Assembly: GCA_019925105.1 (NCBI GenBank)
Contig: JAHGAU010000014.1
Span: forward strand, 1,116,001-1,180,000
Direction: 5' to 3'
Length of the DNA: 64,000 nt
From: Niebla homalea
Lineage: Eukaryota > Ascomycota > Lecanoromycetes > Lecanorales > Ramalinaceae
Made by a program: the position numbers and the translations under genes
Notes under the pieces: generated by a model
Databases searched by the model: none
What the model was told of the DNA's origin: nothing
The model's input: only the letters and a program-made list of their open reading frames with translations
In this document: positions 6,184 to 56,851 of the stretch, in pieces
Position numbering within the stretch: the first letter of the stretch is position 1
How the letters are laid out: the number at the start of each line of letters is the position of its first letter

Positions 6184-6189
6184 ATATAA

Positions 6190-7574: not shown

Positions 7575-7577
7575 TAA
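7575..7577. repeat. Left target-site duplication TAA of the giant element
   Basis: TAA abuts the left inverted repeat and matches TAA at 56440-56442 beyond the right one. Keeping one copy and removing 7578-56439 joins the Gypsy RNase H and integrase frames in phase. Three bases alone would be weak evidence; frame restoration is what supports it. Confidence 0.7.
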
Positions 7578-7591
7578 ACGGGGGGACGGCC
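7578..7591 (+). repeat. Left terminal inverted repeat of the Starship
   Basis: ACGGGGGGACGGCC, exact inverse of 56426-56439. Similarity stops after 14 bp (15 if the adjoining A is counted). The GC-rich CpA-containing sequence just inside is unlike the body of the element. Confidence 0.85.
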
Positions 7592-7758
7592 AAAGGGCAG
7601 CGCTTTCCGGCTTCTGGGTTGGCGTTCTCTCAATTAGGATACGCGCGTATATATCGGTAACATCGCGTTTCACCGTTTTATCTCTTATATAAATACGGCC
7701 TTCCTTTTGCACTTCCTTCTTTTTTCCTTTATTTTCCGTTTAGCGTTTATATTAATTA
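7592..7758 (+). promoter_or_regulatory. RIP-spared left end with promoter-like sequence
   Basis: About 165 bp that keeps CpA and TpG (GGCAGCG, TTGGCG, TCTCAATT, TTTCACCG, TTTTGCACTT). It contains TATAAAT near 7688 followed by a pyrimidine-rich run, the usual layout of a fungal promoter, and leads into the ATG at 7759. Both subterminal recombinase sites and a promoter could lie here. Confidence 0.5.
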
Positions 7759-9060
7759 TGCAGTTAACGGTTTTATAACGGCTTGCTCGGACTTCAATTA
7801 TAGCCCTTTTATTAATCGATATAGCTGCGGCGGTTCCTTTAACTTTAATACTAACCTTTACCTACGTTCTTCTTAATCCTTTTAATCTTTATTAATTTTT
7901 CCTTATTTTATATGATATTATAATGGGCGTTTTAACTAGTTATTTTATTACCTTAATTACCTTACTTTTATAGTTAGTTAAACGATCAGCGCGGTCAATT
8001 AATAACGTTAACGATATTGGGTCCGTATTACCCTTAAGGTAAGGATTAATTGAAAAAATGCCTTACTTTTTTTAAGTAAATTTTTATTACGCCGTTAATA
8101 CTTAATTTAAAGTTAAGCAATTAAATAGGTTATTAAACTTTTTTATTAATTAACTTAATTTAACGACTATAATAAGTAATATTACTTAGATTAAGAATTA
8201 AAACCGAGGAGGCATATATAATTTTAATTAAAGTCCTTTAAGCGTTATAAATCGTGGTAGCTTAACTAAACTATATCCTTATCGTTTAATTTAAAGGCCT
8301 TATCGGGATTGAACCTTTATAGAGTTTTTAAATAATTATTTCTCGGATAAAACGGCTAAGGAAAATTAATTAATTAAAATTAAAATATAATTTTAAGAAA
8401 ATCTATTTACTTATAAGGCGTATAAAAACGTTAATTAAACGATAAAAAAGCTTAAAGAAAGAAATTATTATAACTAAAATTTATAATTAATACGCGTAAA
8501 GTTATTGAATAAAAGCCTTTTAAGTTATTTATCCGTTTTATATAAAGGATTATAGAAGAATAATACCGTTAATACGTTAAGGGAAGGCTTAACTTAAAGA
8601 TCTTTTTACTCCGATAAATATAGGTCGAAATATATAAACGTTTTTAAAAGGCGGTAATAAAACTCGAGTTACGTTAGCGGTTAAAATAAATATGAAGTTT
8701 TAACGGTTAAAAGGCGTACCCGCGTATATTAGTTAATATAAGGATTAACCGGCGATCAACGATTAAGTACCTTAAGTAATCTTATAGTTTTAAGTATAAA
8801 AGGCCCTTTTCTTACCGTTTTACTCTCTATTTTAAAGTTCTTATTTAAACCTCCTTAACTTAAATAAGTCGATACGTCTGAATCGCCCGGTTCCTTTTAT
8901 AAGTTACGTTTTAAAATAGTTTTTATTAATATAAATATTATTAATTTTTACGATTAATTATTATTGAAAGCGGACCCGTATAATAAAAAGCGGCCTTTAA
9001 TATTTAACGGTAATATTCTTATTATTAATAAATAATGCGAGATTCGTTAAACTTTTAAAT
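7759..9060 (+). pseudogene. Left-end cargo gene, unidentified, RIP-degraded
   Basis: From ATG at 7759 (MQLTVL-RLARTSI) the same forward frame can be followed to about 9060 with nearly all stops TAA/TAG. Clear stretches include NRGGIYNFN, LTKLYPYR, TFIEFLNNYFSDKTAKEN (about 8310-8370), TYKAYKNVN-TIKKLKERNYYN, TVKRRTRVY and IRLNRPVPFISYVLK. A TATA-like box and pyrimidine run lie just upstream. I know no family for it. A second recombinase was considered, but no TGxRPG-like block is present. It is the last gene before the element's 3' terminus. Confidence 0.5.
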
Positions 9061-9164
9061 TAAGTAACTAATTAAATATTTAAAACTATAATTTAATTAA
9101 AGTAATAAATATAATTACTTTATTACTTAATAAACTCCTTAATCCTTTTAATAAATTAAGATTA

Positions 9165-9480
9165 AATATCGAAAATACCGGAGCCGATATTAAAGGTAAA
9201 TTATTTTATTTTATAATACGGATAATAATTAATAACTTTATAAATATAGTAAAAGAATTAGGTCTTAACCGTAAATACCGTTATATTGGTAACGATATTA
9301 ATTAAGACCTTTTAAGCCTTAAGGAGATTTTATTTAACGTTAAGGAAATAAAAGAGTTATAATAAGCGGGCGTAAGTAAAAACTTAACGGAAATTCCCGC
9401 GGTAAAAAATAATTAAAAAGGATATATTAATTTTAAATTTAAATAAGTTAAAAACAGAAATAAATATATTAATTCCGCTT
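9165..9480 (+). pseudogene. Unidentified coding remnant
   Basis: A forward frame reading LNIENTGADIKGKLFYFI, then FINIVKELGLNRKYRYIGN, LLSLKEILFNVKEIKEL and AGVSKNLTEIPAVKNN. Stops are rare and all TAA. It lies in a frame different from the gene at 7759 and may be its continuation after an intron or indel. No domain recognised. Confidence 0.4.
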
Positions 9481-10066
9481 ACCGTTAAATATTATATTAA
9501 TAACTTATAAAAGAGCCGAGACTTTAATATAATAAAAATTTAAAGATTTACGATAAATAAGACGTTAAGCGATAAAGTAACGATACTTAAAAAGCTCCGC
9601 GAGAATATATTAATATCCAAGATATTAAGCGAGAGGCTATTATTATTAATATATATATAAATAACGGTTTATTTTTTAAAGAATAAGATAATAAATACGG
9701 CGGAAAGCGGAGTTTATTAAGAATTCTACTGACTTCTATAGGGGGTATAGAAGCTAAATAAGATTTATACTTTATTATAATAACCTTAATACTAATAAAT
9801 TATTTCCTTTTAAAGGTTTTACTTTATATCGGAAGAATAAACTTTTATTATTATATTTTTCTCTTTTACGTTATAACTCTTACGTTTTAATAATAACCTA
9901 TATATTAATTTATATATCGATTATTAAAAGTTATTATAATAACGGGAATTATCTTTTAATTAACGGAAATAAAAGAGTTCAATAAGATAATAAAGCGGTA
10001 GAAGTAAAAAACGTAAAAAAGGGACTTTTAAGGGATTATAACGTAAAAAACGCTTTACCGCGTTTT
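9481..10066. other. RIP-mutated stretch without assignable gene
   Basis: AT-rich with short open runs in several frames and no motif I can name. Probably still coding remnant between the pieces at 9165-9480 and 10067-10500. Confidence 0.3.
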
Positions 10067-10500
10067 ATAAAGAAAAAACGTCGATTTACCATAAGGAAAA
10101 AGTTATTTTTAAAACGTTATATCCAAAGACGTCACTTTTTATCCCGATTCTTTTTAGATAAAGAAACCGAAATAGGGGCTAAATTAAATATTAATAATTA
10201 CGCGCCTATAAAAATTTATTATATTTTAAATTTTTTACCCGCCTTTTACTCTCCCTTTTCGATCGGTTATTAAAAAGAATTAAAACGTAATAAGAAGCTT
10301 AAAAGAACGGTAATTATTTATAAATAGCAATATTAAGAAAGGGAAATCTTATAAAAAAGAAATATAAAATAAAAACGTAAAAGGCCTTAAAAGTAATACT
10401 TAATTCAATAGAAGGAGTCCTAAGTATACGGTATCTATTTTATAGCTCCGAAATTAATATAAAATTAAAGGGAAAAGAAGGCCTTAAAAAGTAAATAATA
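10067..10500 (+). pseudogene. Unidentified basic, charged coding remnant
   Basis: Forward frame with IKKKRRFTIRKKLFLKRY, then FFLDKETEIGAKLNINNYA, FYSPFSIGY, then a charged part (KELKRNKKLKRTVIIYK, EREIL-KRNIK-KRKRP) and VYGIYFIAPKLI. Restoring TAG/TAA to W/Q gives a Trp- and Arg-rich C-terminal part. Family unknown. Confidence 0.45.
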
Positions 10501-13455
10501 ACCTATTAATAAAGCAAAGTTATACCTATTTTATTATATGATAAAAACTATAAACCTATATTTAACTATCTTTTAAGTATAAATTACTTAATTAATAAAA
10601 AGTTTATTATTATAGCTTATCCGGTAAAATACGTTTATTAAGAATTTCTATAATTATATCCTCGTAACTTTATAAGAATTATTTCCGGTTATAAGAAATT
10701 ATTTTTAAAAACTTTTATTTAAATAACTTAGCTATTAAAGCTTAATAAGATACCTTTTTATTAAGAATATTACTTTAAGATATATTTAATATTGACTTTA
10801 ATAATAAATACTTAATATATTTTATATAACCGTAAATAAAATACCCCCGTTATAATTAGCTTTTAACTTATCTTTATACGTATAATACTTTAATCGCCGT
10901 ACCCTTTGAGGTTTCTTTTTTACCTTCCTTTTATCTTCCTTAACTTATTATTCAGCTATATATATTATTTTTATCGCTTTTATTACCTTTATTATTACTC
11001 CGTCTATATTTACTTCCTTTGGCTCGAGTATAATCCTTTTTTAACTTTCTTCGTTTTCCTTTTAATAATTTATAATTTAGAGTAAATTATCCTTATAATA
11101 AATTCTAGTAAATAAAAGTATTATAATATAGGTATATAAATTTATATTTATAATATTCCGTCCCCTTTTAATAGGGACGGAATACTTATATAATATATTA
11201 ATAATAATAAACTTGGGGATTACCCGGTAATTAAAAGTATATACTTTAGATTATCCCTTTTTTTCCCTTTCTCTCTCCGTTTATATTATATATATCTAAA
11301 ATACTTTACGTATAAAGTTAAATAAAATCTTATAAAATTTTAATTAATAGTTTCTTTAAACTTAAAGTAATAAATAGTTTTTTATGCTTTAAGCTAATAT
11401 CATAATTAAGGGTAATTTAAGCGGTATTTAAAGTTTTATTTAGCTTTTTATTCTTATAATCTATATTAAAATGAATTTCTATAATAATAACGCGTATTAT
11501 AAAAAGTATAATAATAATTAAAAGGAAAACCTATTATATTCTTTAATAATATATATATAACGGAGGCTTTAAGTTATTAACTTTAAAAAGGAAATATTAA
11601 GTTTATAAAAGTCTATAAATTAATACGAGATTTCCGATTATTATAATTAAGGTTATAAAATAAAAAATCAAAGTTAAAATTAAGATATTTTTCTTAATGC
11701 TTTTTAAATTAAATATTATTACGTAATAAATAAAGCTGAGAAATAGGAATCCGGCAGAATTAATTATAAAGGCCGTTTAAAAATAGAGACCTTCATTAAT
11801 TAAGCTATAACGTAAGCTATAATCTGAATAAGTATATAATAAACTTTAAGATAAATTATATTAATACTTAATAAATAATATTATTATAAAGAAGTACGTA
11901 ATAAAAATAGAAACGAAAATAAAGCGATAATAAGCCTATTTATATTTAAGATAAAAGTTTACTCCCTTACTTACGTATAATAATTGTAATTATCAACGCA
12001 CCTTCCTAGATTCCCGATTTAAGGCTATTATACCTTTATAGCTATTATATATATAAAGGAAAATTGAATAAAAAGCTTTATAGTAAGTTCGCTTCCTAAA
12101 TTATTTAAATATAGATCGTATAAAGTAATCCTTTATTAATTATTAAATATTATGAATAAGACCTTTAAACTAAGTAAAATAACTAGGGTAATATTAACCG
12201 TATATTTTAATATCGTAATCCTTATTTATAATTAAGAAAGTAATTAAAGTATAAACTTAATACGGCCAGACCGTAAATAAAAAGGGTATAAAATTACCAT
12301 AAAGAAGACGAGAATATTAATAAGGACGTTAAATTAGATGGTTAGTAAAAACCTTTCTATAATAGAAAGGTTATTACGTAAGTAAGAATTAAAGAAACAA
12401 GGTTAAGCGAGGTCAGGAAGCCAGAAACTATAGATAAAGAGTAATAAAGGAGTCTAAGAAGTAAATAGGGCAATAAAGTATATAATTTCTTATAAGAACT
12501 TTTCTATAAATATATAAAAGCGTAAATAATATAATAACCGTCTTTCTACCTTATAAAATCGGGGATTTAATATAAATACTTTTGAATAATATAGGCTCCG
12601 CCTTATTAATACCGTTATTAAATAGGAGTATAAACTCTTAATAAAAAGCGAACCTTATAAGAAAATAATCTAAACGCTTTAAAATATAGGTATTTATATT
12701 AAATCTCGTAAGAATTTAAATATATTAATAATATATATAAATAAAAACAGGATATTCTATTAATAAAATATTAATAAGGTAATTTAAGATATTTTAAGCG
12801 TAATATTATATAAAGCCGTATAAATTACGGATTTAAATAAGGTTTCATAAGATTCTTTTAATAATATATATATTTATAATAAGTAAATCTCCTTTAAAAA
12901 GGTATTTATTAATTAATATAAAAATTATATTATTAGGAGACTTTACTTAACGTCTTTATAATAAAAGCGGACTTAAACGCTTAAAGAAATTAAGCTCTTT
13001 ATGTTAATAGTGTCCGATAAAGAGAATAACGGAACCCCGGTATAAATAAATAAATAATTAACTAGGATCCCGATAATATAGCGATATATTAATTAATTAT
13101 AGACGTTCTAACTTAGTTTATTAACTTTTTAAATATTATAACGATATTACTTCTTTAATAAACTTAATCCTCCCCGTATAAATAGAATTAATAATCTCTA
13201 ATATCCCGTTATCTATTTATATAGCATTTCTTATATTTAAAACCTCTTTGCCTTTCGGCTTATAATTTTAATTATAATAAATAAGATAATATATATATAA
13301 TAAGCGAAAATAAAATAACGATAAATAATACTTAAAGCCTAGTTTATCTTAATCTTATATCCTTTTTATAAAGTAACTCTATATAAAAAACTTATAAATT
13401 TATTTAGAATTAAGGCTTATAATATGATAATTAAAATAAGGCAATATAATATTTA
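10501..13455. other. About 3 kb of RIP-degraded sequence, unresolved
   Basis: No recognisable motif. Two less-mutated islands keep CpA: 11985-12035, and 12390-12480 where a forward frame reads IKETRLSEVRKPETIDKE. A short hairpin lies at 12350-12372. GTCCGATAAAGAGAATAACGG near 13008 is another GC-richer patch. Some of this is surely old coding sequence. Confidence 0.35.
12350..12372. terminator. Hairpin, 10-bp perfect arms, 3-nt loop
   Basis: AACCTTTCTA-TAA-TAGAAAGGTT. Fungal genes do not use hairpin terminators, so it is listed as a structure only. It sits just before a CpA-keeping island (12390-12480). Confidence 0.25.
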
Positions 13456-13860
13456 TTAAAAGGGGGGAGGAATATAAATTCTAATATATTTATAGCCGCG
13501 ACTTTTAATTAAGGTTCTATAAGTAGATTTAAAGTTACTATTAATGATATTTACGTTAATTATTTCCGCGATCTTAATTATAAATTAATAAACGGAATTA
13601 ATAAAGAATATACTTATTATTTCCCCGAATTAAGTAATATTGATACTATAAATATTAATAAGTTTTACGCTTAATATTTCCTTAAACTTAATTAAGATAA
13701 TATTATTAAAGAATTATATTTAAAAACGTATTATAATTTAATTAATTAAAAAATTTTATTCCTAAAAGCTTAAAAATAAATAAATTTAATATTTAATCTA
13801 TTAATATCTATTAACCAGTATTATTATTATTAAAGTAATCTTAACTTATTAAATATAATA
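13456..13860 (+). pseudogene. Unidentified coding remnant
   Basis: Clean forward frame: INSNIFIAATFN, SISRFKVTINDIYVNYFRD, then NGINKEYTYYFPELSN and DTINI-KFYA-YFLKLN, ending in KELYLKTYYNLIN. Acidic and aromatic residues look like a globular domain. No family known to me. Confidence 0.45.
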
Positions 13861-15419
13861 ATAATAAGATACCTCCCCCTTTATATACTGCCTTTAGTTT
13901 AATATCTTTAAGTATTTCTTAAGCTTTCTCGACTTTCTAATTTATAATAATATTTACCCTGTCTTAAGTAATTATAATATTTAATAAGTTTTTCTTTTTA
14001 ATTAAGATAGCGATATACGGTAAACGTAGATATAATATGTTAATACCGGGACGGGTTATATAGATACTTTATCTATATATTTTCCGTAAACTTTATCGTT
14101 ACGTTAACTTAATATATTATATTAATAATATCTCCTTAAAATCCGTATATACTTTTTTATAGAATTTATAATCTTAATATATTTCTTTATTAACTAAAAG
14201 ACCTAAAATAAGGCCGTAATATTAAGATTTAAATTATCGTATTTACTCTTTATTATATTGATTAAATTCAAATTAATATCGGTATTAATATAAATATAAA
14301 TAATATCTGGATAAAAAGATATAATATTATATTTTAATTAAATGCGATAAAATAAAGTTAACTAAAAATATTTATTTTAAAAGTACCCTTTTTACCGTCG
14401 CTTAATTAATATACTATTATTTCATTATATAAGCCGTTATAATAAAATTTAAAGATAACGATTAATAAAGTGCGAAATACATACGTTTTACGTAAGGGAT
14501 TTAAAATAGGGCAAGGCGAATTTAACGTAATATATAATTTAAGGGGAGACCTTATTAAAGTCAGACGTTTATATTCAAATTAAAAGCAGCTTTAATTATG
14601 GTAATAAGTTATAGGGTAAGTAACATTTTTCTTATTATTAATTAACGAGATAAATTATTAAGCTAATACCTTATAAATTTTAACTGGGGAAATAAGCATA
14701 ACGGTAAAAAAGCTTAAAGCTTAATTCCTCCTTATCTTTTAATACGTTAATAAATAAAACGCGGTTTTCCTTCTTAATGAAATTGACGTATTTTTAAAAT
14801 AACGCTTAACCTTTAACGTTCATAATAGTAATTAATAGTAATAACGGTTTATATAAATCTTATAAAGGTAATAACGGTAATAATAATATAAAAGTATTAA
14901 CTTAAAATATTGCGATATATATTACGATAAATATATTCCGATAAATATTACGATAAATATATTACGATAAATATTACGATAAATATGGCTTTAAAGGTAT
15001 ATTACGGGATGAATTTAGGGGGTAACTTTGGGGGTGAAATATTGAATTAATGCCCAATAATAATAATGGTATTTATGAACCTTATAAAAATAATAATAAT
15101 AAAAACGGTATTTATAATTACTATAATAAATAATACGATAGATAATACGATAGATAGTATAATAAATATTATTGTAATAAATATACGGTACCGACTCCAA
15201 TAATAAATATTTAACGTATCTTATATAGCCGTAAATAAAATACCTTAACATTAAAGATACCTGGCCTTTTACTTTTAAAAGTTTAATATTATTAACCTAT
15301 AGTTTATTAATTTTTTAGCTTTTTTAACGTTTGCTCGGCTATTTATATAAAGGAAGTGGTTAAGGTAATTTCTTATAAGGCTAAAAAGCTTAACTAATTA
15401 TTATTTTTTTTAAATATAG
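13861..15419. other. RIP-degraded stretch with simple repeats
   Basis: No gene recognised. Around 14905-14985 an ATTACGATAAATAT-type unit is repeated several times, and AATACGATAGAT is doubled near 15130-15155. The open frame on the reverse strand at 15015-15251 is Tyr/Ile-rich low complexity produced by this repeat-like DNA and is not a gene. Confidence 0.5.
14905..14990 (+). repeat. Short tandem repeat, ATTACGATAAAT(AT) type
   Basis: Units TATTACGATAAATAT / TATTCCGATAAAT / ATTACGATAAAT follow one another about six times with small changes. AT-rich microsatellite-like array. Confidence 0.6.
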
Positions 15420-17500
15420 ATTTAATATTTAATTACTATAAATTCTAAAGTATAAATTTAAAGAAAAAAGTAGATTAAGAAAGGTTAAAACTTATATCGG
15501 TTAATAAATTATCGATACTTAAATATATTATTTTATAGAGTTTTAATGAGTAATAATTATAAACGTTTTTAACGAATTTATAAGTAATCCACTTTTCTTT
15601 ATTATTTAAGGCCGTAAAGCTAAACTTATGGATTAAATAATAATAAAAGGTAATTTTATCTCCTTTAATTATAAGGTAATAGCCGTAAATCCTTACCGAT
15701 TTATAATTATACGAAATAAAAAAGGTAAGGATCTTTTAATTTAACTCTTTCTTATACTTTACCGCTTTATAAAGCTTAATAATACTTTTTATAATAACGG
15801 TTATATTATATACGTTTTATCGGTCGGTAACGTTAAGCGCCGTAACACCATATTTAACTTCGTAAGTAAAAAAGGGAAAATATATCTATATCGTAATTAT
15901 AAAGTAAATAATAAATTTGGACCCGGGCTTATTTATGAAAGGTTTAAGCTTATTTAATTATTTTTAATTAAATATAGATCGCTTAAATCCTATAATAAAG
16001 TCGGGTTATAATTGAATTTTATATAAAGGGAAAAAGATTATGTTATTTTACCCTTTATTAATTATTTTATAGAGATAATTAAAGTAATTAACGTTATAAA
16101 TTATTAATATTTAAGCGGAAGAAACGATTAATAAATTAATATCTTAAATAATTATAACCTTATTTTTATTTTATATTTTCTAGCAAGTTTTTTTAAATAA
16201 GTTATTATAAAATAATGAATTTTAAGGAACCGGCTAATCTATTTTTAATAATATCCGGCAGAAATCTTTAATATTCTTTAGAATATTATTATTATTAAAT
16301 TCTTATATATAATTGCTTTTATTTTTAAGCTCAATTATATAGTCCGGATTCTTATATTAAGCGCTTTTAATTTCCTGTAATAGTTAATTATTAAATATTT
16401 AAAGACTTAATAATAATTGCTTATAATAAAGGGAAGTAAAGAACTTCTTCCTTATAAAGAGATAATATAGATAAGTAAAGGTATATATAACTCGAAACGG
16501 CTCTTTAATATAATATTCTTATAATTAATCCCTTTATCCCGGCTCTTTTAGTAACTTATTTTTTTCGAAATCTTCCTTAACTTAACCGTTTTACTTAAAG
16601 TACTCTTTTTATTACTTTCCAGTTTAAATTTAGTATTAAAGTAGGTTAATATTACCCTCGTTAATATTATTTACGGATAAAATTCACAGTTATTTTAAAG
16701 GAGGTTATTCTTAAGTTTGAAATAAAGGATATTTAATTTCTTACTTTTTTTATCCTTATTCCCGTTTTTAAGAAGGTATAAATAGTTTATAAAGGGTTTA
16801 TAGGCGTTATAATGCTTTAATTAAATTAGCGTTACGGTATAATAAGAAAAGCAATAACGGTATTTACTTTTCTACCCTCGGGAATATTATTTATTAATAA
16901 AGAAAGAAATACTTATACTTCCTAAATATAATTACTTTTAAATAAGAATTACTTATAAGATTCTTATATTGCTTATAAGCGTAAGCTTTTACGAAGGGAT
17001 TACTGTTTTTTAATATTTTAAGGCTGCTTTCCTATAAATAATTAATTTAAATACTTAAAGTATAAAACCTGAATATTATACCTTAAACCTTTAATCTTAA
17101 AGGTTATTACCGGCTTCGCTTAATATTTAATTTTACATAATTACGGGCTATATTAATTAAAATAAAATAGAAAACCGTTAATATACGATAACTATAAAGT
17201 ATAAAAAGTCTTAATAAAATATTAAAAAAATATTAAGATTACGTAAACCTTAATTCTCCGTTTATATAGTTATATTAAATATAAATAAATAGTAGAGTAG
17301 GATCGGGTAACGGATAGCTAAAATATAAAGAAGTTAGTAGGATATAAATTATTAATAGCTATATAGGGGAAATAACTAGAAGCTTTTTAACATAATTAAT
17401 TTATTTAAGACTATACGGCCGAGTTTCGTAAGGCGTAATATTTTTACGTAGCAATTATTTAAGGGGTAACGGCGTACGGATATATTAATATTTAGCTCTT
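15420..17500 (-). pseudogene. DUF7924-like fungal gene, RIP-degraded
   Basis: The C-terminal part is very clear on the reverse strand (about 15930-15430): IYFPFFTYEVKYGVTALNV, then ITVIIKSIIKLYKAVK, ILTFFISYNYKSVRIYGYYL, KGDKITFYYYLIHKFSFTAL and NNKEKWITYKFVKNVYNYY. This order (EVK-G..AL.VADRQN; RGIVEL; SHDH..VRIYGHYP; FYRHPI.KFDFT; EKWTAYKFTKNVY) is one I know from fungal proteins with a DUF7924-type domain, thought to have a nuclease-like fold and common in repeat-rich regions. Reading upstream to about 17500 gives patchier text (SENRGNIKYQLYTKRAKY) where the N-terminus should be. Family name from memory, moderate certainty; start unknown. Confidence 0.55.
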
Positions 17501-19704
17501 TTAGTATAAAGCTGGTACTTAATATTACCACGATTTTCCGAAAACGCTTTTAAAAGAATAATTTATATTAAATATATATTATAATAAATAAGTTAATAAA
17601 TATAATAGCTTTTTCTTATATAAAGTAACCGAATAATACGTTCTTTAACCATAGTATATTAACTTTAAAATAATCCTTTATAACCTCTTAACGGCGTATT
17701 ATTAAGCGATTACTAATAGTAATTAATCGTTATTTTTTAAACGAAAAACTTTAAAAATAGAGTATAATTAAACTACTTAATAAAATAATATAAAATAATT
17801 AATATATAAAATAAAACGTAAAACGGGATAATAAGTATATTCGTAATATAGATTATTAATCTTAATTTTATTTATTTATATTATTACTTTATTATTCTTA
17901 ATCCGTTTTATTACTTAATTTATTTCCGCGATTTATTCCCTTTTCTATTATCTGCTTAATCTCTTTTAAAATAAGCTATAACCGCTATATATAGTCGTAT
18001 AGGTTCCTTAAATCCTTTTATAAAGCGTTAAGCTATAAGTACTTAACGTTTAAATTACTCGAATTAATTAAAAATATTTATAGCAATCTATTTATAGCGT
18101 ACCGTCTTTTTTAACTCTCTACCTCCTTTTTTACTTAATTAATTTCTATTAAGGAAAATATAATATCTTTATTATTAAATCTATAGCTTTATAAAAAAAT
18201 AAGAGCCGTTATCCCCGGTTTAACGGTAAAGTCGTTTATAATAAAAGTTATTAATTAATAAAAGGTATTATTTATATAATTAACGTTTCTTAAATTGGCG
18301 AAATCGGATTTATTATTATAAGTACCCTTAAAGACGTTCGGTAAGTCGTTTATCTTATTTAATATTATATTTTATTCACTATTATTAATCCGGGTAAAAT
18401 CGAACATTATTATATAGTAAATAAAATAAGTATAAGAGATTTAGTTAATTTTACGGTTAAATATAAAAGGAAAGAAAGAAACGTATTTTTCGTTATTAAA
18501 GTATCCGTAAGAATTTTATTATCCTTTATTAAAATATAATAGAGGAAATCTATTATCCTTTATTAAAATAGTCTTATTATAAATCCTATAAAATCTATAG
18601 GAAACTTTATTAATGGATATTAAATAATTTTTAAAATATATTAAAGGGGGGAAGGCTTATTAAGCGTTAATTTTCTATAAATATAATATAATAAGTAATC
18701 TTCCTTTCTATAGCTTTTTATTATTATTAATTAAAGATATTAAAAGACTAAAACTAAACTTTACGTAATTAAATAAGGATTATAATAATCCTTTAACTAT
18801 TCTTACGGGTGAATATTACATAAAAGTAAGAATTATATGAATTTAATTTTACGTAATACGGAGATTACTCCCGTATTAAAGATACTTTTATAAAGTTTAA
18901 TTAATACGTTAAAGAGTAATTAATAGTTTTTAATATTAAGCTATTTAATAATAATAATAAGGATCTTTCTATATAAGAGGTATTAAGTAATATCTTAAAA
19001 TCTTAATATAATATTAATTATTTAATTAAACTATAAATATAATTAAACCTAAAGGTCCGGTTTTTTAGTTAAGCCGTTAAATTATATTTAAGGCCGAAGT
19101 TAAGCTATAAATTAAAAATGGTTTCTTTAACCCGGTATACTTTACTTAAGGTAATATAATAAATACGAGCGGGTAGGCTTTATAGTCCTATATATTAAAT
19201 TATTATTAACCTAAGATAATCTTATATATTATCCGTTACCCGCGTTTATCGCGTAAATAACTACGTTAATAAATATTAATTACGTTTTTAACGTTAATTA
19301 AGATTAATATAAGGTAACGGGCACCGGTAATAGCTTTACGGGTATAATATAAATATTATATTATATAGCTATATTTAAGTTAAAGATTAATCCTAAGTAT
19401 TACTTTCTTTTTATTACCGACGGTTATAATACGTAAAACTATTAATAGCCTACGTAATCTTAAAATATAATTTAAAGAAATAATCTTTATATAAGCGCGT
19501 ATGTAATTAAAATTAATATAATATTAAATTTTTACTTAAAATATAACCTATATTAAATAATTATTTTAATACGTTAAACCTTATAAGGATTATAATCTTA
19601 ATAAAATAATAAATTAAAACGTAATAATTAAACTTAAATATACTCTATTTTATACTTAAGAAAGTTATTTTTTTTTAAAAAATTACTTCAAAAAATTATA
19701 TTAA
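17501..19704. other. RIP-degraded sequence, unresolved
   Basis: Nothing recognised on either strand. Composition is like the rest of the element body, with scattered CpG and almost no CpA. Confidence 0.3.
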
Positions 19705-46060: not shown

Positions 46061-46285
46061 TTATAACGGCGTTCTAAGTAAATTTTTTACCGTATTAAAG
46101 TTTAAATTTAAATTAAAGAATATTATATAAAGATATAAACTTAAAGTTAAGTAAATACTTAAATAAAAGTTTACGATTAATACTTGAATATTAAAATCCT
46201 TAATAAGGAGGGTCGTAATAAGTAAACTTACCAAACCTTTTCTAATTATAATATATTTATATTCCGTTAAAAAAAGTTTATCCAT
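46061..46285 (-). pseudogene. N-terminal piece of a hypothetical reverse-strand gene
   Basis: A 74-codon open run from ATG at 46285: MDKLFLTEYKYIIIRKGLVS, then IKDFNIQVLIVNF and a Leu/Asn/Tyr-rich part that would be Ser/Pro/Thr-rich before C->T changes (L from P or S codons), ending RTPL. The start codon with a CpA-poor leader is plausible, but no domain is visible. Confidence 0.35.
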
Positions 46286-47899
46286 CTTTAATTTTTATTA
46301 AAACCTATATAGATATAATAATAAGTTAAGGGGACTTATATATTTATAAGTATTAAATAAGTCCTTATAATCTTTTTTAAATTTACGTATTTATTAAAGT
46401 AAATAATAAAGATAATAACGTTAATTAAAGAAAATAATATTAACGTAGCTTTACGTAAAATAAGTAACGTTTAATAAGATAATAGTATAAATTATATTAA
46501 ACTGGATAATACCACTTAATAATAAAAAAAACGTCTTAAATAGCGAATAACTATAGATTTACAATATGGATTCTCGTAAGATCCGAAAATAATTTATAAT
46601 ATTAACTGTGGCCATTATTTATAAAGGCCTTTAATCATAATAAATTTAATATATACGCCGTATATTTATTATATAACGTTAGTCCTAAAATTAAAGTAAT
46701 ATATAAAAGTAAATATAAATAAATACGCTTAATATAAAAGGCTTAATTATATTGTTCCTTAATATAATAACGTTAATCTCGGTATTTATCGTAATAATCT
46801 TACGCTTATAATTTAAGCGACTTAAACAAACCAGACTTCGGTTAAACGATTTTACTATCGTTATCGTTTTAATAAGTTAACGTAGTTTTCTATTAACTTA
46901 TATTAATAATTTAATAGATTTTTTAACTTAATTAAAGTATTATTATTATTATTAATAAGCTTAAGTTTACCTTAAAACTCTTAAAGTTAAATCGTGTAAA
47001 TAAATATAATCCTTAATAAGGCCAGCTATTATTAAAAAGACTTAACGTTAATAAACGTTATCTTATTACGTAAAGTAAGCTTACTTTTATATTAATAAAA
47101 AAAAAGGTATTAATATCTTAAATAATTATAATTATTATATTGCTTTAAGTAACCGTTAATACCTTTATTAAATTGTTAATCCTTTACCTTTATATAATAT
47201 TATTCTTTATAACGTAATTATAAAGAATAATTATTACCGTAATAATTATAATTCTCGTTTATTAAATAGTTATTGTAATGTCCCTTTTTTTTTTATGTTT
47301 TCCCTTTATTTATTTATAAGATAAAAATATATATAACGGGTTTTACGTAAATTAATAAGCAGAATATATAAGCTTCTTAATTATTAATTTATTATTCGAC
47401 GGGGCTATAATTATATTATTTCTTTATATAATATAATAGATCCGGATATTAAAGGTGAAAAAAAATTATAATTTCCGTAATATTTAAATTTAATAACATA
47501 TAAGTTTATTTAATTATAATCCGTATAAGGTAGTTAATGAAGGAATAGTATTTACTTTATTATTATTCTTAGAATTGTATCTTTCGTTTCTTTTAATTAC
47601 GTTAATATTATATATAATATATTATCGGAAGCGATTTAAAGTAATTTAAAAATATACCTTAATATAATTAACGTTTATTTATTTATATTTCGCCCCGTAA
47701 TATATTAAATAAAGCTTGGCTTTAGCTTTAATTGGGATAGTTAATTATTGAAATTAAATCCGTAAGTTCCGATTTAATAACGTTCTTAATCCGTAAAAGG
47801 CCGGTAACCGCTTAAGGTAGTAGTACCTCGTAATACCTCGAAACCTCTTCTTAAAATACTTAATATATAAGTAAATATTACTTTAATTATATAAGTAAT
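46286..47899. other. RIP-degraded sequence, unresolved
   Basis: Nothing recognised. A CpA-keeping patch lies at 46555-46640 (TACAATATGGATTCTCG, ACTGTGGCCATT). Confidence 0.3.
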
Positions 47900-49244
47900 A
47901 TATAAAATCTATTTATCTCTTATAAAGGTTTATTTAAGTAATACCGTATCGTTTCTTTAGATATAAGGGTATATTTATAATTATTTATTAATTATTTTCG
48001 CTATTTCATAAAGGCTCGTTATTATTAAAGAGGATTACTTATATATCTTAAAATACTTTAAGTTTCTCTTTAATCGTTTACGGTTAATTAAATAACTCCT
48101 ATTTAATTTAAACTTCCTTAATAACCTATAACTCCTCCTGCTTACTTTAAACTTCCTTAACGTTTTATAACTTACTTTTTATTACCGTAAGGTTCCTTTA
48201 ATCTGCTTATTCTACGTTTTCCTTTATATTTAGGCTAAAGGTTCTTTTTAAACCCTTATTAACCTTAAATACTTCTTTTATAATTAAAGGTATTAATAAG
48301 GATCTTAAATAGCCGCGTTATTCGTTAGATTCTTACCGCGTATAACGATCCTCCATTTATATTGTTATATTAAAGATAACCTTAGCCTTTTAATTAAAGG
48401 TAATTATAAAGAATAGCCGATAAAAGGTTATTCTTATCTTAAGGTTATAATCTATGTTTTTTATTACTTTAATATAGTCCTTTTATAAGATTATTATTAA
48501 TACGGATTTAAAGCGCTTAAATTTATTTAACGCCCCCTTAATTTTATTTCTTTGCTTATCCGTTTTATTAATATACGGATTCTTTAACTTAAGATCCATA
48601 ATATTAACCGGATCTTTTTATTTAAACGGAAATATTACGTTAAGAAACGCTTTAATATCTATTAAAGAATATTTAAAGATTATTCAATTTCCTTTATGGA
48701 TTTTAAGTTTATTAAATTTAAGTTTAAGTTTTATTAATATATTTATCGTAAGATTACTTTTTAAATCTCCCGTAAAGGCTAATTTATTCCTATACTTAAC
48801 CTTATTAAGTAAACTATATTTAATAATAACTTCGGGCCTATTATAAGGGTTTATTTTATAGTACTTAACCTTTTATTTCTTTTTTTTAATTATAAACTCT
48901 ATTGATTTAATTAGGATTACGCCTTTATTATTAACCTTATCGTTATCCTTATCCTTATTAAGATCGTTAAGTTCATAATCATTATTATCAATATTATTTA
49001 TAAAAATATCTTTACCCTTTATATCGGTTAATATAATAGCCGGTATATTTATAGTTTAGCCTCTTATAAAGTTATCGGTATTATCCGTACTTATTAGCTT
49101 TAATAAAGCTTTTATATTATTTCCTATTATATTAATTAATTTATTTATATTTTTAACGTCTTTAATATTATTAATATCGGGTATTTCCTTATTAAAAACG
49201 TTTAAATCCGCTTTAATCTTTATAATACGAGCTTCGTTTTTCAA
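47900..49244 (-). pseudogene. Unidentified charged protein gene, divergent pair member
   Basis: From ATG at 49244 (MKNEARIIKIKADLNVFNKE) the reverse frame is open to 49056 and then continues through RIP stops: an acidic part (INNIDNNDYELNDLNKDK), KGVILIKSIEFII, YNRPEVIIKYSLLNKVKYRN, MDLKLKNPYINKTDKQRNKI, KGALNKFKRFKSV and a Glu/Lys-rich C-terminal part near 48000. Very hydrophilic; no domain named. Shares its 365-bp upstream region with the forward gene at 49610. Confidence 0.5.
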
Positions 49245-49609
49245 TTTTTATATATTTTTAAGCTTTTTTATAATGGTGTGTTTCCTTTTATTTAGTGTTT
49301 TTTTAATTAACTTATTAATTTTTAAGTTTGATTTATTCTTATTTAAGTTTAATTAAATATTAAGCTTATTTTTTTCTGCGTTAAAAGAAATTAGAAATAT
49401 TATTATTATAAAAGATTAACTTTAAGTTAATCTTATATATAATAAGAAATGATTTCTAAAATTAATTATAGAAACTTTATATTCCTATAAAAAAGCTATA
49501 TATAACTTAAGAAAATTGGAGTTAAAATTAATTTTATAACGTATATTTTTATACTTAAATATAATTCTATTATTTATAAATTTATAGAATAATAATAAAG
49601 AAGCGAATA
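49245..49609. promoter_or_regulatory. Divergent intergenic region
   Basis: 365 bp between two outward-facing ATGs (49244 reverse, 49610 forward). No clean TATA box survives. A conserved role as a shared promoter is inferred from layout only. Confidence 0.4.
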
Positions 49610-50110
49610 ATGTTTATCGCTCTTATGATATTCTCCTTTATTACTTTAAGTATAGCCTATACCTTTATAACGTTAATTAAAATTATAACCTATCGCTTAA
49701 TCCTTATAATTACTTTACTTACCTCCGTAAGTATATATTCTTTTATATTTACGGAGCTTTTATCCTTAAGTATTAAATTATCTTTATTAAGTATTTTAAT
49801 ATTAAGTTTAATATTAAATTATAATGTTACTTCGTATTAAAATAGCCTAATATTTACTTTAATAAGTAACGGATTTTACGTATCCATAAATAGCGGAGTT
49901 TATATATCGGCAAATAACGGATTCTTTATATCGGTAAATAGCGGTCTACCTTTATTAAGCTATTATAATATATTAAACGAAACATTTTTTAATACTTTAA
50001 TATTAACCCCGTCAGGTCCCGTTATTATGCTGTTTAAAGGTTTTAACGTACGCTTTACTTATAATTTGGGTTTACGTAAAATTATGCTTTTAATAATATA
50101 AATCATTTAA
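49610..50110 (+). pseudogene. N-terminal piece of a forward gene, originally Ser/Thr/Pro-rich
   Basis: 76 codons open from ATG (MFIALMIFSFITLSIAYTFI). The present Leu/Ile/Phe excess is what C->T makes of Pro, Ser and Thr codons, so the original was probably a low-complexity Ser/Thr/Pro-rich N-terminus and not a membrane protein. Then three near-repeats of ATATCGG(C/T)AAATA(A/G)CGG at about 49890-49945 give a short duplicated peptide. Family unknown. Confidence 0.4.
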
Positions 50111-53100
50111 AATCGGATATTAAATAGCTTATTTACTTAACTAACTATAGAGTAATAGATTTTATACTAATCTATAGTTATATAGAGATAATATAATATA
50201 CTGGCTAAAAAATAAAACGCTTATAGCACTATTAAGTCTATTAAGATTTCTTTAATTAACTATATTTATAAAAGTTCGTTTATGAACCTTTTTATTTATT
50301 AATTACGCTTTTTAATCGTTTATATTCCGCTTTAAGGTTATCCCGCTTAATATATAGAATAGTATACTCGACTTAAATATATATCTTCCTTTAACTATCG
50401 GATAGTTCAGGATTATTAATAGAAAAGATATAAAGCTACTAAGTTAATATCTTTATTATATTAATACTGGCGTTAATACATATTTTAGCTTTTTAACGGA
50501 GGTTTTATTTTTATTAAAAAAGTTAATATATATTATTATATGCTTAATAATTAAACTTTACGTTAAACTCGGCTTCTTTATATATTATTTTTAGTTATTA
50601 AAGTATATAATTATTATTACGGTAGTATTTATTAATAATATTTAATTATTAAGTAAAATTAATATATTTTACGGCCAAATTCTTATGCCGTTTTTTAAGT
50701 ACTTTATAAGTATTATTTAATCGCTTAAGGTCTTTACTTATAATTTATAACCTTTAAGCCATTAATTATAGCGACGTATAATAAGGAGTATTTAAGGGAT
50801 AAAAATTATATTAAGCTATTTAAATAGCAATAAATTAACTTAAAAATTAACTTATTATAAAGTAGTTAACTATAATATTACTACGTTAAAAGTCCTTTAA
50901 GCGTTTAACATTTTATATATAAATAAACGGGGTATAAATTTAAGGTAAAAAAGGCGAATAAAAAACGGTAAAAGAAGAAAAATAGCTTTATTTTCTTATA
51001 AACGGTATTTTAAAATAAAATATAATAAGGGGTATATAATATTTTATTCTTTATATATATAACTTAATTAACGCTTAAAATATAATTATTATTCTTTAAT
51101 ATTTTAAGCCAATAAATTCAAGGAGCTATAATAGCTTTAATATTTATATTAAGCGCCTTTACTTTATATTTAAGGGGGGCCTACTTATCCAAGGGCGTTT
51201 AAGAAGTTATAGTAACGGTAAAAATCATTATATACGTTAAGAAACTTTTAGCTTTATTATTATTAATTTATATTTATTATTAAGCTTTATTATCTATGCT
51301 TAAGTAAACTAGAAATAATGCTGGAAGGCATTAAAGCTATAATCTACCGTAAAGTTAGCGGTTTATAATTATTATAAGGATTTTAATTTATAAATATATT
51401 TAATTATTTAATTACGATCTTTAATAACCTACTTCTTAAAATACGAAAACGTAATATATTAAGCTATATACTCGGAATATTGTTATAATATAATTAAATT
51501 TAAATAAATTAATTAATAATAATACTTATAATTTATTCTTTATTTAACGGTTATTTTAATCTTTAAACCGAGGTATAAATATAATATCGATTAACTTAAT
51601 ATATAATTACGTAGAGATCCGAATTAATTAAGTATATTAATTTATAAGCTTTCTTAAAGAAATTCCGTTTACGTTTACGGGACTTCTTTTAAGTCGCTTT
51701 TTACTTTAATTTAAGAGTTATTTTAAAGATAGAATCGTTTATAACTACTATAAGGGGTTAAAGCGGCTATTAATTCTAACTTAAGTTAACGTTAAAAACG
51801 GCTTTATATTTAACTATAATATTTCTGTTTTTCTTTATAAGCTATATTATATTAATATTATATTATTTAAATAAATATTAAATTTAAAAATAACGCTTAT
51901 AAATAAAAAGAATATCGCGTAAATATATACTATAATTATTAAAGGAATCTTTGGTTTATTAATAATCTTTTACTTTTATTTCGTAATATTAATATTACTC
52001 CGGAAGTTAATAGCTTTTACTTTAACTTATTTAATCTACCTTTGGGGGTTACGTAAATTCAGCTTTATTAACCTATAATTACGGGTAGGTTTCTTAATAC
52101 GATTAATATTTATTAACTTTAATATTTTTTATAGTGCCTTCCGGGTTAATTCTATATTAATAGTAAATATACGTATTATAAATCTCGTTTTAATTAATTT
52201 AATTCCTTTATTTTTCGGTCTTTATTATAGCTTTATTGCTTTAATATTAAGTATATTTTTAGATAGTTTTTATTAAGTTTATAGTTCCTTTATAGGGATT
52301 AATATAATACTTAAGACTATTTATACCGTTTTAAGTGTTTTATAGAAATAATTCTTAAAGTAAAATTCCGATTAAGTATACGGATTAATTATAAGTCCCT
52401 TTTCCTTTATAAATAGGGATAATTTATTTATTAATAATAAACTATTTATACTATAGTATTATTATTACTCTTTACGGTATTATAGATTAAGCGATTTTTA
52501 TATAAGATTTTTTTATAAGGTTATTAAGTATATATAAGGATATTAATATTTATTATTTAATGCTATTTAATATAGTAATTAACGTTTTTAACGCTTTATT
52601 TCTATATTTTATTTAATATCTTTTATACGTTAATTTTTCTGAATACCGTTTTATATTTTTACCGGAACTTCTCCTTTAATTATGGTTTTTCTTAAGTTAT
52701 AGTTTATATAGTTAAATGATATATTAAAATCGATATTAATATCCCCCGCTTAATAAATATTCGCCCGGGGTAATATATTAATATTTAATTATTATAAGCC
52801 GGCTTTAAATTACTATTATAATTATATCTGTTTATAGTTATATTTTAATATATTCCGGATACGGGCCCTATATATTTATAACTATTAATAAAACCTCGCA
52901 ATAAACTTATTAAATAACTATACCGCCTCTATAATAATTATATTGAGAAAATAACCACGTATTAATATCTCGTACTTTACGGAGGGCCCTATAATAAAAA
53001 TAAATCTTTAAGGTAATATAAAAGGGTACTTTTAATCGTATTAAAATAGGGTATCGTTACGTTTTTATTTTACTTTAAAGATATCTTGGACGGGTATATT

Positions 53101-53139
53101 TAATACCTAGTTATAATACGTCGAACTTATCTAATATAG
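50111..53139. other. About 3 kb of RIP-degraded sequence, unresolved
   Basis: The continuation of the gene at 49610 is expected in the first part. A reverse frame near 52790 reads ITPGEYLLSGGY. Nothing identified. Confidence 0.3.
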
Positions 53140-53640
53140 TTATTAAGGAATAAAGGTAAATCTTTTATAAGAAGAAATAAATCCCTTTATTTAACTTTTA
53201 ATAGGTAATAAAAAAGCTATATAAGAGTTTTTAAATAAAGCGTTAAAATAAAATACTTATAAAAATAACTATATAAGTAAAGGGTCTTATAGCTCGGATT
53301 AAGTCTTTAACGATACAGATATTATACGTATTTATCTATTATATAGAAGCTGAAAATAATTAGCTTACCTTTAACGGAAAGCACGCTTATATTACGTATT
53401 ATTACGGGCGTCCCAATCTTAAAAACTTAATCGATATAAAAATAATTAAGGATTATTATTGTTTTATAAAGGGTAAAATTAAATAAAGAATTAAAAAAGA
53501 AACGGGTAATATAATTATTATAAATAAACCTAAAGACTCCTATAATAATCTTAAGCTAAATATTAATATCCGTTAGGAATTCCGTATACGAGGAATTGCG
53601 ATTATTGGTTAACGCTAAAGTTAATAAAGGGTTTCGATTT
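53140..53640 (+). pseudogene. Unidentified coding remnant
   Basis: Forward frame: VIKKLYKSF, VKGLIARIKSLTIQILYVFI, YYIEAENN-LTFNGKHAYIT, YYYGRPNLKNLIDIKIIKDY, CFIKGKIK-RIKKETGNII, INKPKDSYNNLKLNINIR. Faces the captain gene (convergent). No family recognised. Confidence 0.45.
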
Positions 53641-54399
53641 ATATAGATATAATTCTAGCCATTAAGTATATATAGTTAATATTTATAATTATTAAATACC
53701 TTTAATAATAATATACGTAAGATATAAAATATTCTAGGGTAAATTAATAAAACCTTTAAGTCGCCCTTATAATTTAATTATAAATTATAATATAGCTCTT
53801 ATATATTCTTATATACAATAATAGTTATCTACTTAAATTTTTAGTATAGTCTTTCTTAAGTATATTAATGAGTTATAGACTTTAATAAGAATATCTCCGG
53901 TTAAATTTAAAGATAATAAAACCTTTTATAAACTTACGAATTTATTTATAAAACCATTAAGTCCGTGTTATATATATACTTTCTATATAATTTTATAGAA
54001 GCGTTATACTTTTTAAAACCACGTTATATCTTAAATAAGGATAAACGATTAATTAACTTTCCGGATAATAACGGAAATACTTATAATAAAAGTGCTTTTT
54101 AAGGTTACCGCGAGTTAAGAAAGTCTTAAGGCGATTATTATTTAATAAACCTTTATTCCCGAGGCAAAAGATGTATTACGTAATTTTATATTTAACCGGG
54201 AGCGTTTCCGATAAACTCCTTATTAAAAAAATTAATATCTGTTCCTTTTTAATCTTAAAGTTTACTTTAAGGCGGCGGAAGCTTTAGCTTTTTTACTTCT
54301 TATAGAGTACGATTAACGTATTAATAATTATTCTTTACCGTTAATACTCCTCTTTGGTTAATAATTTAATAAAAATAAAAAGCATATTAATAACGTAAA
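53641..54399. other. RIP-degraded sequence 3' of the captain
   Basis: Nothing assigned. Confidence 0.3.
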
Positions 54400-56200
54400 C
54401 CCTTTCCGTAAAAATAAAATTAATTATTTAAAGAGCTTTTTATTTTGCGACCGGTAATCCTTTTAATTATTATTAAATATTAATTATTAATTATTCTTTC
54501 TTATATTTCTTTTTAATCTTTATTAATAAAGCTTTTTTTATATTATTATTTTAAATTATAATAAGCTTAATAAATCTGCCGGTAATTATTATATAAAAAG
54601 GTCCCTTTTATATTAATAATAGAACGTTTCTGATTTTAGAAGATCTATAGTAATGACTTTAACCTCCGACGTAAAAGTTTTACCTTTAGGTAATAATTGA
54701 CTTTAGTTTATTGCGTAAAATTAAGTTTCCGCGGCCGTTAAAAATCAATAATACGACTTATCCTATTAACGGTTTATATTAAGGTGGTTTATAATTTTAA
54801 ATTATAATAAACGGCTTAAATATTAAGTATATATTTTAAGGCGTAATTCTTTTAAAAAACGGAGAAGTTATAATATTATAGGATAATATTCCGCTACGCG
54901 TCCGTAATCCTACTTATATACCTATAAATACGACCTTCGATTAACGATCGTTGTTTACTTATTATTATTATTAAGAGCTTATTTATTATTACATCGAAAG
55001 GTATATAAACCCGTAAAAAGTTCTATACCGGTAATACTCCCAAGTTTAGTTATTTAAGGTCGGAGAATAATATTAATTAAAGCTTACTCCTTAAAGATCT
55101 ATATACTCTTTATAATATTTTTATACCGCTAAAATAAAGGTTTATCCGTTATCTCCTTTTTTAAAGGCATTAACAATTATTTCTATTTTAAAGTAATTTA
55201 AAAACGGAATAACTACTCCGGTAAAGTTAAGGAGGAAGTAACGAAAGCTTAGTTTATAAAGAGTAAAACGAATATAATAATATAAGGATAAAGTAAAAAA
55301 TACGGTTTATTCAGGACATTAAGAATCCTGAATTTGTTTTTATTACGCTTATTAATAACCGTAATAATATTGGACGCTGTAATAAATATAGTATAAAAAA
55401 AGAAGATATACGTATTTTTCTCTCCGAGGTAGTTTTTAGTATAATTAAATATAATCTTAAATAATACCCGAGGCTATTTTCCACCCTTAGGGTCCGGTAA
55501 TAAAATTACTTTAATATATTAATAACGGACCGCCAATAGCGTACCTGGCTAATTACCCGTAATCCCAGCAAGTTATATAATTAAGGTTAATTATACACGG
55601 TAACGTTTATAAGGGAAAGCCGTCTTTATAGAGGTATAAAGCGTCTTTAAAAGCTCGAATTTATCTTTTATATATAATACGGGCTTTTTCTTCTTATCCT
55701 TTTTAAGGTTATATACGATCGTTAGCCGTTATTATACTTAAGGATTATTAGCCACGCCAACTTTATAAAGTGACTAAGATACCCTATATATTTAACTTTT
55801 AATAAAGGGATCGATTTAATAACGGCCCGTTTCCTACTTCTATAAAAGGCAGAAAGTATTTTAATATATTTATAAAGAATTAACCGTATTAAGGTTATCC
55901 TTACGCTCCCTTAATAGTTAATTAAAGAAGGCGTATAGAATATTAATAAAGATATTTTTAAGGGTGGTTATAAGGTCCTTCTTAATGAAATAATAATATT
56001 TAACGGTACCAATAAGACTCAAATCGGTCTATTAAAAAGGGGCTTTTACTGGTATTAAAAGCTCTTAATTAAGCTTAATAAATACTCGCTACCCTTTCCG
56101 TAGATTTATTGGGTGAATTTTAAAATATTTAAGTTATTTTTTATGTACCGGTAGTACTCCGGTAAATACTTTATAATATATATTATAGCTTAATTATGCT
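54400..56200 (-). pseudogene. DUF3435 tyrosine recombinase (Starship captain), RIP-degraded
   Basis: The captain excises and integrates the element. Reverse frame: YIKDKFELLKTLYTSIKTAF and PYKRYRV-LTLII-LAGITGN, then ITGN-PGTLLAVRY-YIKVIL at about 55520-55565. The latter fits the DUF3435 hallmark GxTxxRPGALLALRYRHIxVTLL (stop = R), followed by LPDPKGGK-PRVLFKIIFNYT and KNYLGEKNTY, matching FEFTKxFLGxKxANTFPIPE. Further down: LTLPE-LFRF, TKLGSITGIELFTGLYTFR (LRPWIKRIGEITGFE..TxPYxLRYG), which carries an Arg of the active site, and the region of the expected His-Arg-Tyr set near 54850-54990. The C-terminal charged part runs to about 54400. It is the first gene from the right terminus and reads inward, as captains do. 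Many stops; inactive. N-terminal border not fixed. Confidence 0.85.
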
Positions 56201-56425
56201 TTTAAAAAGCTATATAGTCGGTGGGTTAAATTAATTAATAGTAGTATAAAAAAAAAGAAAGGATAAGGAGAGCGGCGGTCCTATATTAATTATATTATAG
56301 AGAGGGGAGGAAGGGTCTTATAGCCGGGCTGTAAGCCACGTATTTTAATATAGGAACGGGAGCGATTATCCGGTAAAAAGGATGTTAAAAGCGGCGCCCG
56401 GACCAGCCAAAAATGGCCATTCTCA
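56201..56425 (-). promoter_or_regulatory. RIP-spared right end, captain leader region
   Basis: GC-richer sequence that keeps CpA/TpG (GGACCAGCCAAAAATGGCCATT near 56400). Read on the reverse strand, a pyrimidine-rich run (CTCTCCTTATCCTTTCTTTT) lies near 56270-56245, the usual fungal promoter layout ahead of the captain. Subterminal recombinase sites may also be here. Confidence 0.45.
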
Positions 56426-56439
56426 GGCCGTCCCCCCGT
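56426..56439 (-). repeat. Right terminal inverted repeat of the Starship
   Basis: GGCCGTCCCCCCGT, exact inverse of 7578-7591. Followed by TAA (56440-56442). Confidence 0.85.
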
Positions 56440-56442
56440 TAA
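56440..56442. repeat. Right target-site duplication TAA
   Basis: Matches 7575-7577. On the element's own strand it reads TTA before ACGGGG. Confidence 0.7.
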
Positions 56443-56850: not shown

Positions 56851-56851
56851 T

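What the first reader, a model, noticed from the sequence alone, without database searches (positions are those of the whole stretch)
7575..56442. A 48.9-kb RIP-killed Starship inside a Gypsy pol gene, with both ends defined to the base
Exact 14-bp inverted ends (ACGGGGGGACGGCC) are 48.9 kb apart and flanked by TAA on both sides. The reverse-strand Gypsy RNase H frame enters the right border and the integrase linker frame leaves the left border; deleting the element and one TAA joins them in phase (…TFLFINF | IL-NKLIL-LKELPER…). Finding borders by a host-element frame does not depend on comparison with an empty site. Fully degraded Starships are hard to find with captain searches because the recombinase frame is broken, so this may be undescribed.
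Basis: partly seen in the sequence, partly recalled or inferred. Interest (0 to 1): 0.95.

Follow-up and report, generated by a model that had tools for sequence, protein, structure and literature searches.

The report
RIP-mutated Starship giant transposon with borders
A giant "Starship" jumping element of about 49,000 bases once landed inside an older jumping element in what is probably a lichen fungus, spread to several places in that genome, and was then wrecked by what looks like the fungus's own repeat-mutating defence; the borders first proposed were 1 and 7 bases off and can be corrected.

Summary
Confirmed and corrected. The window holds a Starship of 48,870 bp (7577-56446), RIP-degraded throughout, inserted between the RNase H and integrase domains of a Gypsy pol gene. 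A DUF3435 captain runs inward from the right end (56189..53960; tblastn to an intact Teloschistes relative, E 4e-152). The ends carry a 15-bp TIR and a short direct repeat, and empty target sites exist in paralogous repeats. A full copy (C1) and an interrupted one (C21) sit in two other repeats. So the "TAA" duplication is spurious: the repeat is TATA (7573-7576, 56447-56450), and AAAATT beyond the captain-side TIR belongs to the element. C14 and C1 differ by 6,642 transitions but only 56 transversions, so they were nearly identical before mutation. RIP-derelict Starships are already in print; this is a new, well-bounded member of a known kind, apparently in a lichen fungus (Lecanoromycetes).

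The parts
7577..56446 (-). The Starship, 48,870 bp; captain-proximal (5') end at 56446, captain-distal (3') end at 7577
   Evidence: Ends by TIR and by ungapped fit to empty paralogs at three insertions; collinear with copy C1 at 85-88%
7573..7576 (.). Direct repeat TATA, captain-distal side
   Evidence: TATAA precedes the 14-mer at 8 of 8 distal ends read
56447..56450 (.). Direct repeat TATA, captain side
   Evidence: TATA at 6 of 9 captain-side ends read, ATA at 9 of 9
7577..7591 (+). Terminal inverted repeat AACGGGGGGACGGCC, captain-distal end
56426..56440 (-). Terminal inverted repeat AACGGGGGGACGGCC, captain-proximal end
56441..56446 (.).
   Evidence: Absent from the paralogous empty sites aligned at three insertions; AATTTT, AAATTT, ACTTTT or TTATTT at the 9 captain-side ends read, captain orientation
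53960..56189 (-). Degraded captain gene (tyrosine recombinase, DUF3435), inward from the right end
   Evidence: tblastn of P0004 (679 aa, Teloschistes) covers aa 9-55, 55-351, 355-493 and 511-679 in order, E 4e-152
54958..55671 (-). DUF3435 profile 1-213, with 15 in-frame stops
   Evidence: E 2.4e-32, 8.5e-33
54432..54911 (-). DUF3435 profile 213-370 in another frame
   Evidence: E 4.2e-10
21717..22407 (-). Probable remnant of DUF3723, a known Starship accessory family; two collinear pieces in two frames
   Evidence: E 4.8e-4 (19.4 bits, cut-off 22) and E 0.034 (13.3 bits): each below the curated cut-off
15547..16197 (-). Cargo remnant with DUF7924
   Evidence: E 2.3e-54
33001..33561 (+). Cargo remnant with protein kinase domain
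   Evidence: E 4.3e-8, 33.3 bits, just over the cut-off of 31.7
6183..7576 (-). Left (3') part of the split Gypsy: integrase H2C2 at 7233..7105, Tf2-type SH3 at 6363..6244 (both weak)
56451..56850 (-). Right part of the split Gypsy: RNase H at 56818..56555
   Evidence: E 8.9e-8

Best explanation
A Starship giant transposon whose captain tyrosine recombinase inserted it at a TATA core in an already repeated Gypsy copy. Likely steps: the captain binds the two 15-bp inverted arms and joins the ends; strand exchange over a short TATA-like core inserts the element, leaving TATA on each side (borders shown here; enzyme action inferred from family knowledge). The inferred circular junction would be arm - TATA - AATTTT - inverted arm, i.e. 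two 15-bp inverted arms around a 10-bp AT spacer. Its copies (three with both ends, plus several partial) reached different sites while nearly identical, became a target of RIP as repeats, and were mutated separately, leaving captain and cargo dead (order inferred).
For: Captain; a DUF3435 match within about 2 kb inside 8 of 8 captain-type ends found with the exact TIR. Borders. Empty paralogs running through the joint: 15 of 17 (C14), 38 of 38 (C1, two self halves and one weak 81-bp row left out), 40 of 40 (C21); these are the scored rows of capped lists. Three different target repeats speak for transposition, not segmental duplication. RIP: composite index 0.88-1.42 in 64 of 64 1-kb bins; C14 against C1 has 6,642 transitions and 56 transversions over 48,798 sites. 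DUF3723.
Against: No allelic empty site from another strain could be examined; all empty sites are paralogs. DUF3723 is below its cut-off; no patatin, ferric reductase or NLR was recognised. No circle was seen. C10, a related element with both ends, has GATA on the captain side against TATA on the other, so the core need not match fully.
Confidence: 0.95

Rival explanations
1. A DDE-type DNA transposon (for example PIF/Harbinger-like, recalled) with TIRs and a 3-bp TAA target duplication, swollen by nested insertions.
For: TIRs plus an apparent TAA on both sides.
Against: TAA is not the duplication. The one recombinase found is a DUF3435 captain next to one end. No transposase or reverse transcriptase domain was found in six frames inside, while the same kind of scan detects RNase H in the flank; but it finds the equally mutated integrase H2C2 only at E 0.027, so a mutated transposase could be missed. 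The 48.9 kb is collinear with C1 apart from one 5.8-kb insertion in C1, so it moved as a unit.
Confidence: 0.02
2. A Starship with borders as the reader gave them (TAA duplication), the 9-nt difference from paralogs being a later small insertion in this Gypsy copy.
For: TAA flanks both TIRs in the window.
Against: The same 12-bp offset appears at three unrelated target repeats, and similar bases lie outside the captain-side TIR at the 9 ends read.
Confidence: 0.02
3. Not one element but a chance pair of TIRs from different members of the family, with rearranged DNA between.
For: Many family ends exist in the genome.
Against: C1 matches the whole 48.9 kb end to end, and both flanks belong to one Gypsy family with contiguous paralogs.
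Confidence: 0.01

Closest known systems
Starship superfamily (captain DUF3435 tyrosine recombinase)
   Same: Captain at one end reading inward, TIRs, short direct repeats, tens of kb of cargo, DUF3723-like accessory remnant. In A. fumigatus 18/20 high-confidence Starships have TIRs and 19/20 have direct repeats of 2-12 bp (passages of PMC12153272).
   Different: Several copies in one genome and RIP throughout; host probably a lichen-forming fungus; captain family name not assigned here.
RIP-affected derelict Starships (in P. variotii IMV00236 and Spiromastigoides, PMC11623301; GtA elements of Gaeumannomyces, PMC11905480, PMC12134995)
   Same: Starships heavily affected by RIP (passages read).
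   Different: GtA strains have a single such element each, with average CRI 0.2-0.3; here several copies, with CRI 0.88-1.42 per kb, and borders fixed from paralogous empty sites in the same genome.
Sanctuary (Bipolaris sorokiniana), PMC12506042
   Same: The 3' direct repeat is invariant while the other, as I read the cut passage, varies; here 8 of 8 against 6 of 9.
   Different: ATACCT there, TATA here; no shared sequence tested.

Membership tests
Starship | DUF3435 captain recombinase at one end, reading inward | tested here: met
   homology starts about 250 bp inside the TIR on the inward strand; broken by stops
Starship | Flanking direct repeats from the target | tested here: met
   TATA on both sides
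Starship | Terminal inverted repeats (usual, not universal) | tested here: met
   15 bp exact
Starship | Empty insertion site | tested here: met
   Met with paralogous sites; an allelic site in another strain could not be tested
Starship | Same element at more than one site with conserved borders | tested here: met
   C14, C1, C21 with the same 12-bp joint; the middle of C21 was not searched
Starship | Accessory genes (DUF3723, patatin, ferric reductase, NLR) | tested here: inconclusive
   DUF3723 only, below cut-off
Starship | Captain necessary and sufficient for movement | not testable with these tools
   Needs a bench assay; this copy's captain is broken
Named captain family (Phoenix, Hephaestus, Tardis and others; some names recalled) | Captain phylogeny with reference captains | not tested
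   No reference set on hand; the best named hits are lichen fungi, then among others Zasmidium, a Dothideomycete (capped candidate list)
PIF/Harbinger-like DNA transposon | 3-bp TWA duplication and DDE transposase (recalled) | tested here: not met
   TAA is not the duplication; no transposase domain found, though a mutated one could be missed

The most novel reading that the evidence does not exclude
RIP leaves the attachment sites of dead Starships usable. Pooled over 11 RIP-mutated ends, the outermost 50 bp are markedly poor in RIP, and the TIR itself contains no CpA or TpG, so dead copies could still be moved in trans by an intact captain of the same family elsewhere. Odds lowered from 0.15 to 0.12 on checking: some of the 11 ends are partly mutated, and ends were found by their exact TIR, so ones with a damaged TIR would have been missed.
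Probability: 0.12. Interest if true: 0.65.

Novelty: new member of a known kind. Interest (0 to 1): 0.5.

Why it matters
It shows that a wholly RIP-mutated Starship can be bounded to the base within a single genome by using other copies of the repeat it landed in, without a second strain. Three insertions give a consistent junction: 15-bp inverted arms, TATA core, 6-bp asymmetric tail. That is a concrete prediction of the circular attachment site, and the circular form of Starships is stated to be unproven in a 2025 paper (passage of PMC12506042). It also documents a multi-copy Starship family mutated by RIP, apparently in a lichen-forming fungus.

Tried and rejected
TAA as target duplication: rejected. 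My own first correction, a 5-bp repeat TATAA/TTATA, was revised: the last A matches the other end's TIR, and in C21 it differs from the target in the 3 paralogs aligned, so the repeat is TATA and the TIR is 15 bp.

"The 3' repeat travels with the element" was considered from C21 and is not proved: the deciding base is the TIR's own 15th base; only C10 (GATA against TATA) and the 8/8 against 6/9 asymmetry remain.

Protected ends by selection or by bound captain: not needed. One end of an unrelated 525-bp repeat shows a similar RIP-poor edge (14-17 CA+TG per 100 bp in its first 50 bp, 1.6-2.4 in the middle, 4 copies), so an edge effect of RIP is the simpler reading. This control is imperfect: the adjoining 100 bp of flank is also fairly high (5.5-6.5) and the repeat's other end shows only 4-5.

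Pfam scan: six frames of 7578 to about 56446, stops as X, 18 stretches of 5,000 residues plus 6 of 1,334; matches at E up to 0.1 on 6 of the 24; a weak kinase (0.031) and SRF (0.031) hit were not counted.

The exact TIR hit at C36:86056 was dropped as not an end (G+C-rich, no family sequence). Of 17 one-mismatch hits (the reversed control gives 7) only C10:936504 and C16:114402 were examined in sequence, and C39:95982 by its captain's position.

Captain family naming: no reference captains on hand. Three founding papers (DOIs 10.1093/molbev/msac109, 10.1093/nar/gkae327, 10.1073/pnas.2214521120) were not held, so nothing was seen of them.
Full report
Setting. The window is C14:1116001-1180000 of a 50.6-Mb, 52-contig genome. 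G+C is about 22%, and 64 of 64 1-kb bins have a strong RIP signature (composite index 0.88-1.42). The eight hits to the captain of a less-mutated family member (C16), where named (7 of 8), are from Gallowayella, Teloschistes, Heterodermia, Psora and Xanthomendoza. Named hits to a cargo-type protein from a related element include Lecanora helva, Varicellaria, Trapelia, Circinaria and Xanthocarpia, besides a distant bacterial one (most of the 59 hits bear no species name). Teloschistes and Lecanora are Lecanoromycetes, so the host is probably a lichen-forming Lecanoromycete (inference).

Observation. The inverted 14-mers are exact and unique of their kind in the window. In the genome the motif occurs 16 times, its reversed control 0 times. 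These 16 are 7 captain-distal ends, 8 captain-side ends and one unrelated site. 8 of 8 captain-side ends have a DUF3435 match within about 2 kb inside.

Host gene. Both flanks match the same Gypsy family: 15 of the 17 right-flank Gypsy hits are directly joined to a left-flank hit. The Gypsy copy is cut again at 56850 by a 525-bp repeat (56851-57375).

Borders. Two other members give independent tests: C1:1003326-1057980, whose flanks join across 38 of 38 scored paralogs of another repeat, and C21:735101-893132, whose flanks join across 40 of 40 scored paralogs of a third repeat. In the paralogs aligned base by base (7, 3 and 3), each lacks exactly 12 bases beyond the TIR-to-TIR interval. A scan of 0-20 dropped bases peaks at 12 at all three sites. 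Since the TIR is 15 bp (AACGGGGGGACGGCC), the simplest account is: direct repeat TATA at 7573-7576 and 56447-56450; element 7577-56446; six element bases AAAATT between the captain-side TIR and the repeat. TATAA precedes the 14-mer at 8 of 8 distal ends read; at the captain side TATA stands at 6 of 9, AATA at 2 and GATA at 1. Of these 17 ends, 15 come from the exact-TIR search and two (C10 distal, C16 captain side) have one mismatch.

Captain and cargo. An intact 679-aa captain from Teloschistes chrysophthalmus (P0004, DUF3435 E 9.1e-137) aligns to the window in four ordered pieces covering most of residues 9-679 (E 4e-152), at 56189..53960, minus strand. The captain is broken: 15 in-frame stops in the first DUF3435 half alone. 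Six-frame scans found DUF7924, a protein kinase and a weak two-piece DUF3723; no transposase, integrase or reverse transcriptase domain was found inside. That absence is soft, since the mutated H2C2 of the flank scored only E 0.027. DUF3723 is a listed Starship accessory family (passage of PMC12506042).

History. C14 and C1 align over 48,798 sites with 6,642 transitions and 56 transversions (0.115%). RIP-type changes therefore explain nearly all the difference, and the copies were almost identical before. By context the differences are 3,050 CpT, 1,892 CpG, 948 CpC and 751 CpA; the low CpA share is not the textbook bias and probably reflects exhaustion, as only 233 CpA cytosines survive in both copies. 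The left Gypsy flank differs from its paralogs by 0.22-0.57% transversions (7 copies, about 1,390 sites) and the short right flank by 0-1.0% (7 copies, about 400 sites), in line with a Starship landing in an older Gypsy, though the right flank alone is too short to tell. Other copies or pieces are C21 (interrupted), C30, C47 and C32, C8 and C15. More distant relatives are C10:902851-936517 and probably C16:114402-167337 (its two ends paired by inference), both partly unmutated.

RIP-poor ends. Pooled CA+TG in bases 14-50 from the end is 6.3 per 100 bp at four distal ends and 12.3 at seven captain-side ends, against 0.8-2.4 beyond 100 bp inside and 0.9-3 in the flanks. Individual ends vary: C8 and C47 (captain side) and C15 and C21 (distal, from about base 36) show some mutation within the first 50 bp. 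One end of a 525-bp repeat behaves somewhat alike, so an edge effect of RIP is the default explanation; continued use of the ends in trans is possible but untested.

Known or new. RIP-affected derelict Starships and multi-copy Starships are in print (passages of PMC11623301, PMC11905480, PMC12134995, PMC12153272). Two searches for Starships in lichen fungi listed no such paper in the held library (6 of 6 listed; 12 of 231 listed); I recall that work on Xanthoria exists as a preprint, unseen here. So: a new member of a known kind, with unusually well-fixed borders and a testable junction.

Noticed in passing
G000:C10:902851-936517 (L029-L032): A related 33.7-kb Starship, partly not RIP-mutated, with degraded captain and ORFs for a caspase-domain protein and a CHAT-domain protein.
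   Followed up: partly
G000:C16:114402-167337: Probably a related 52.9-kb element: captain-side TIR ends in CGGCA, distal TIR in CGGCC; G+C about 0.5 near its distal end. The two ends are paired by inference.
   Followed up: partly
G000:C31:788700-798658 (L041): Next to a distal Starship end, ORFs of normal G+C for an NPHP3_N domain, a winged-helix plus ankyrin protein (together NLR-like) and a FAD-binding monooxygenase-like protein.
   Followed up: no
window 7577-7627 and 56390-56440, and nine more RIP-mutated ends: Pooled, the outermost 50 bp of the Starship ends are poor in RIP, while both flank and interior are mutated; some single ends are partly mutated.
   Followed up: partly
window 56851-57375: A 525-bp repeat with 22 other copies among the scored hits interrupts the Gypsy; its left 50 bp are also RIP-poor.
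   Followed up: partly
window 34921-35146: A 54-bp tandem repeat, 4.2 copies, inside the Starship.
   Followed up: no
G000:C1, about 1045620-1051425 (L037 3120-8926): A 5.8-kb insertion in the second full copy, absent from the window's copy.
   Followed up: no
window about 7840-11070, and C39, C4, C10, C16: The distal 2-3 kb of the Starship is shared at 65-73% with other places in the genome, some of them family members; no Pfam domain was found there.
   Followed up: no
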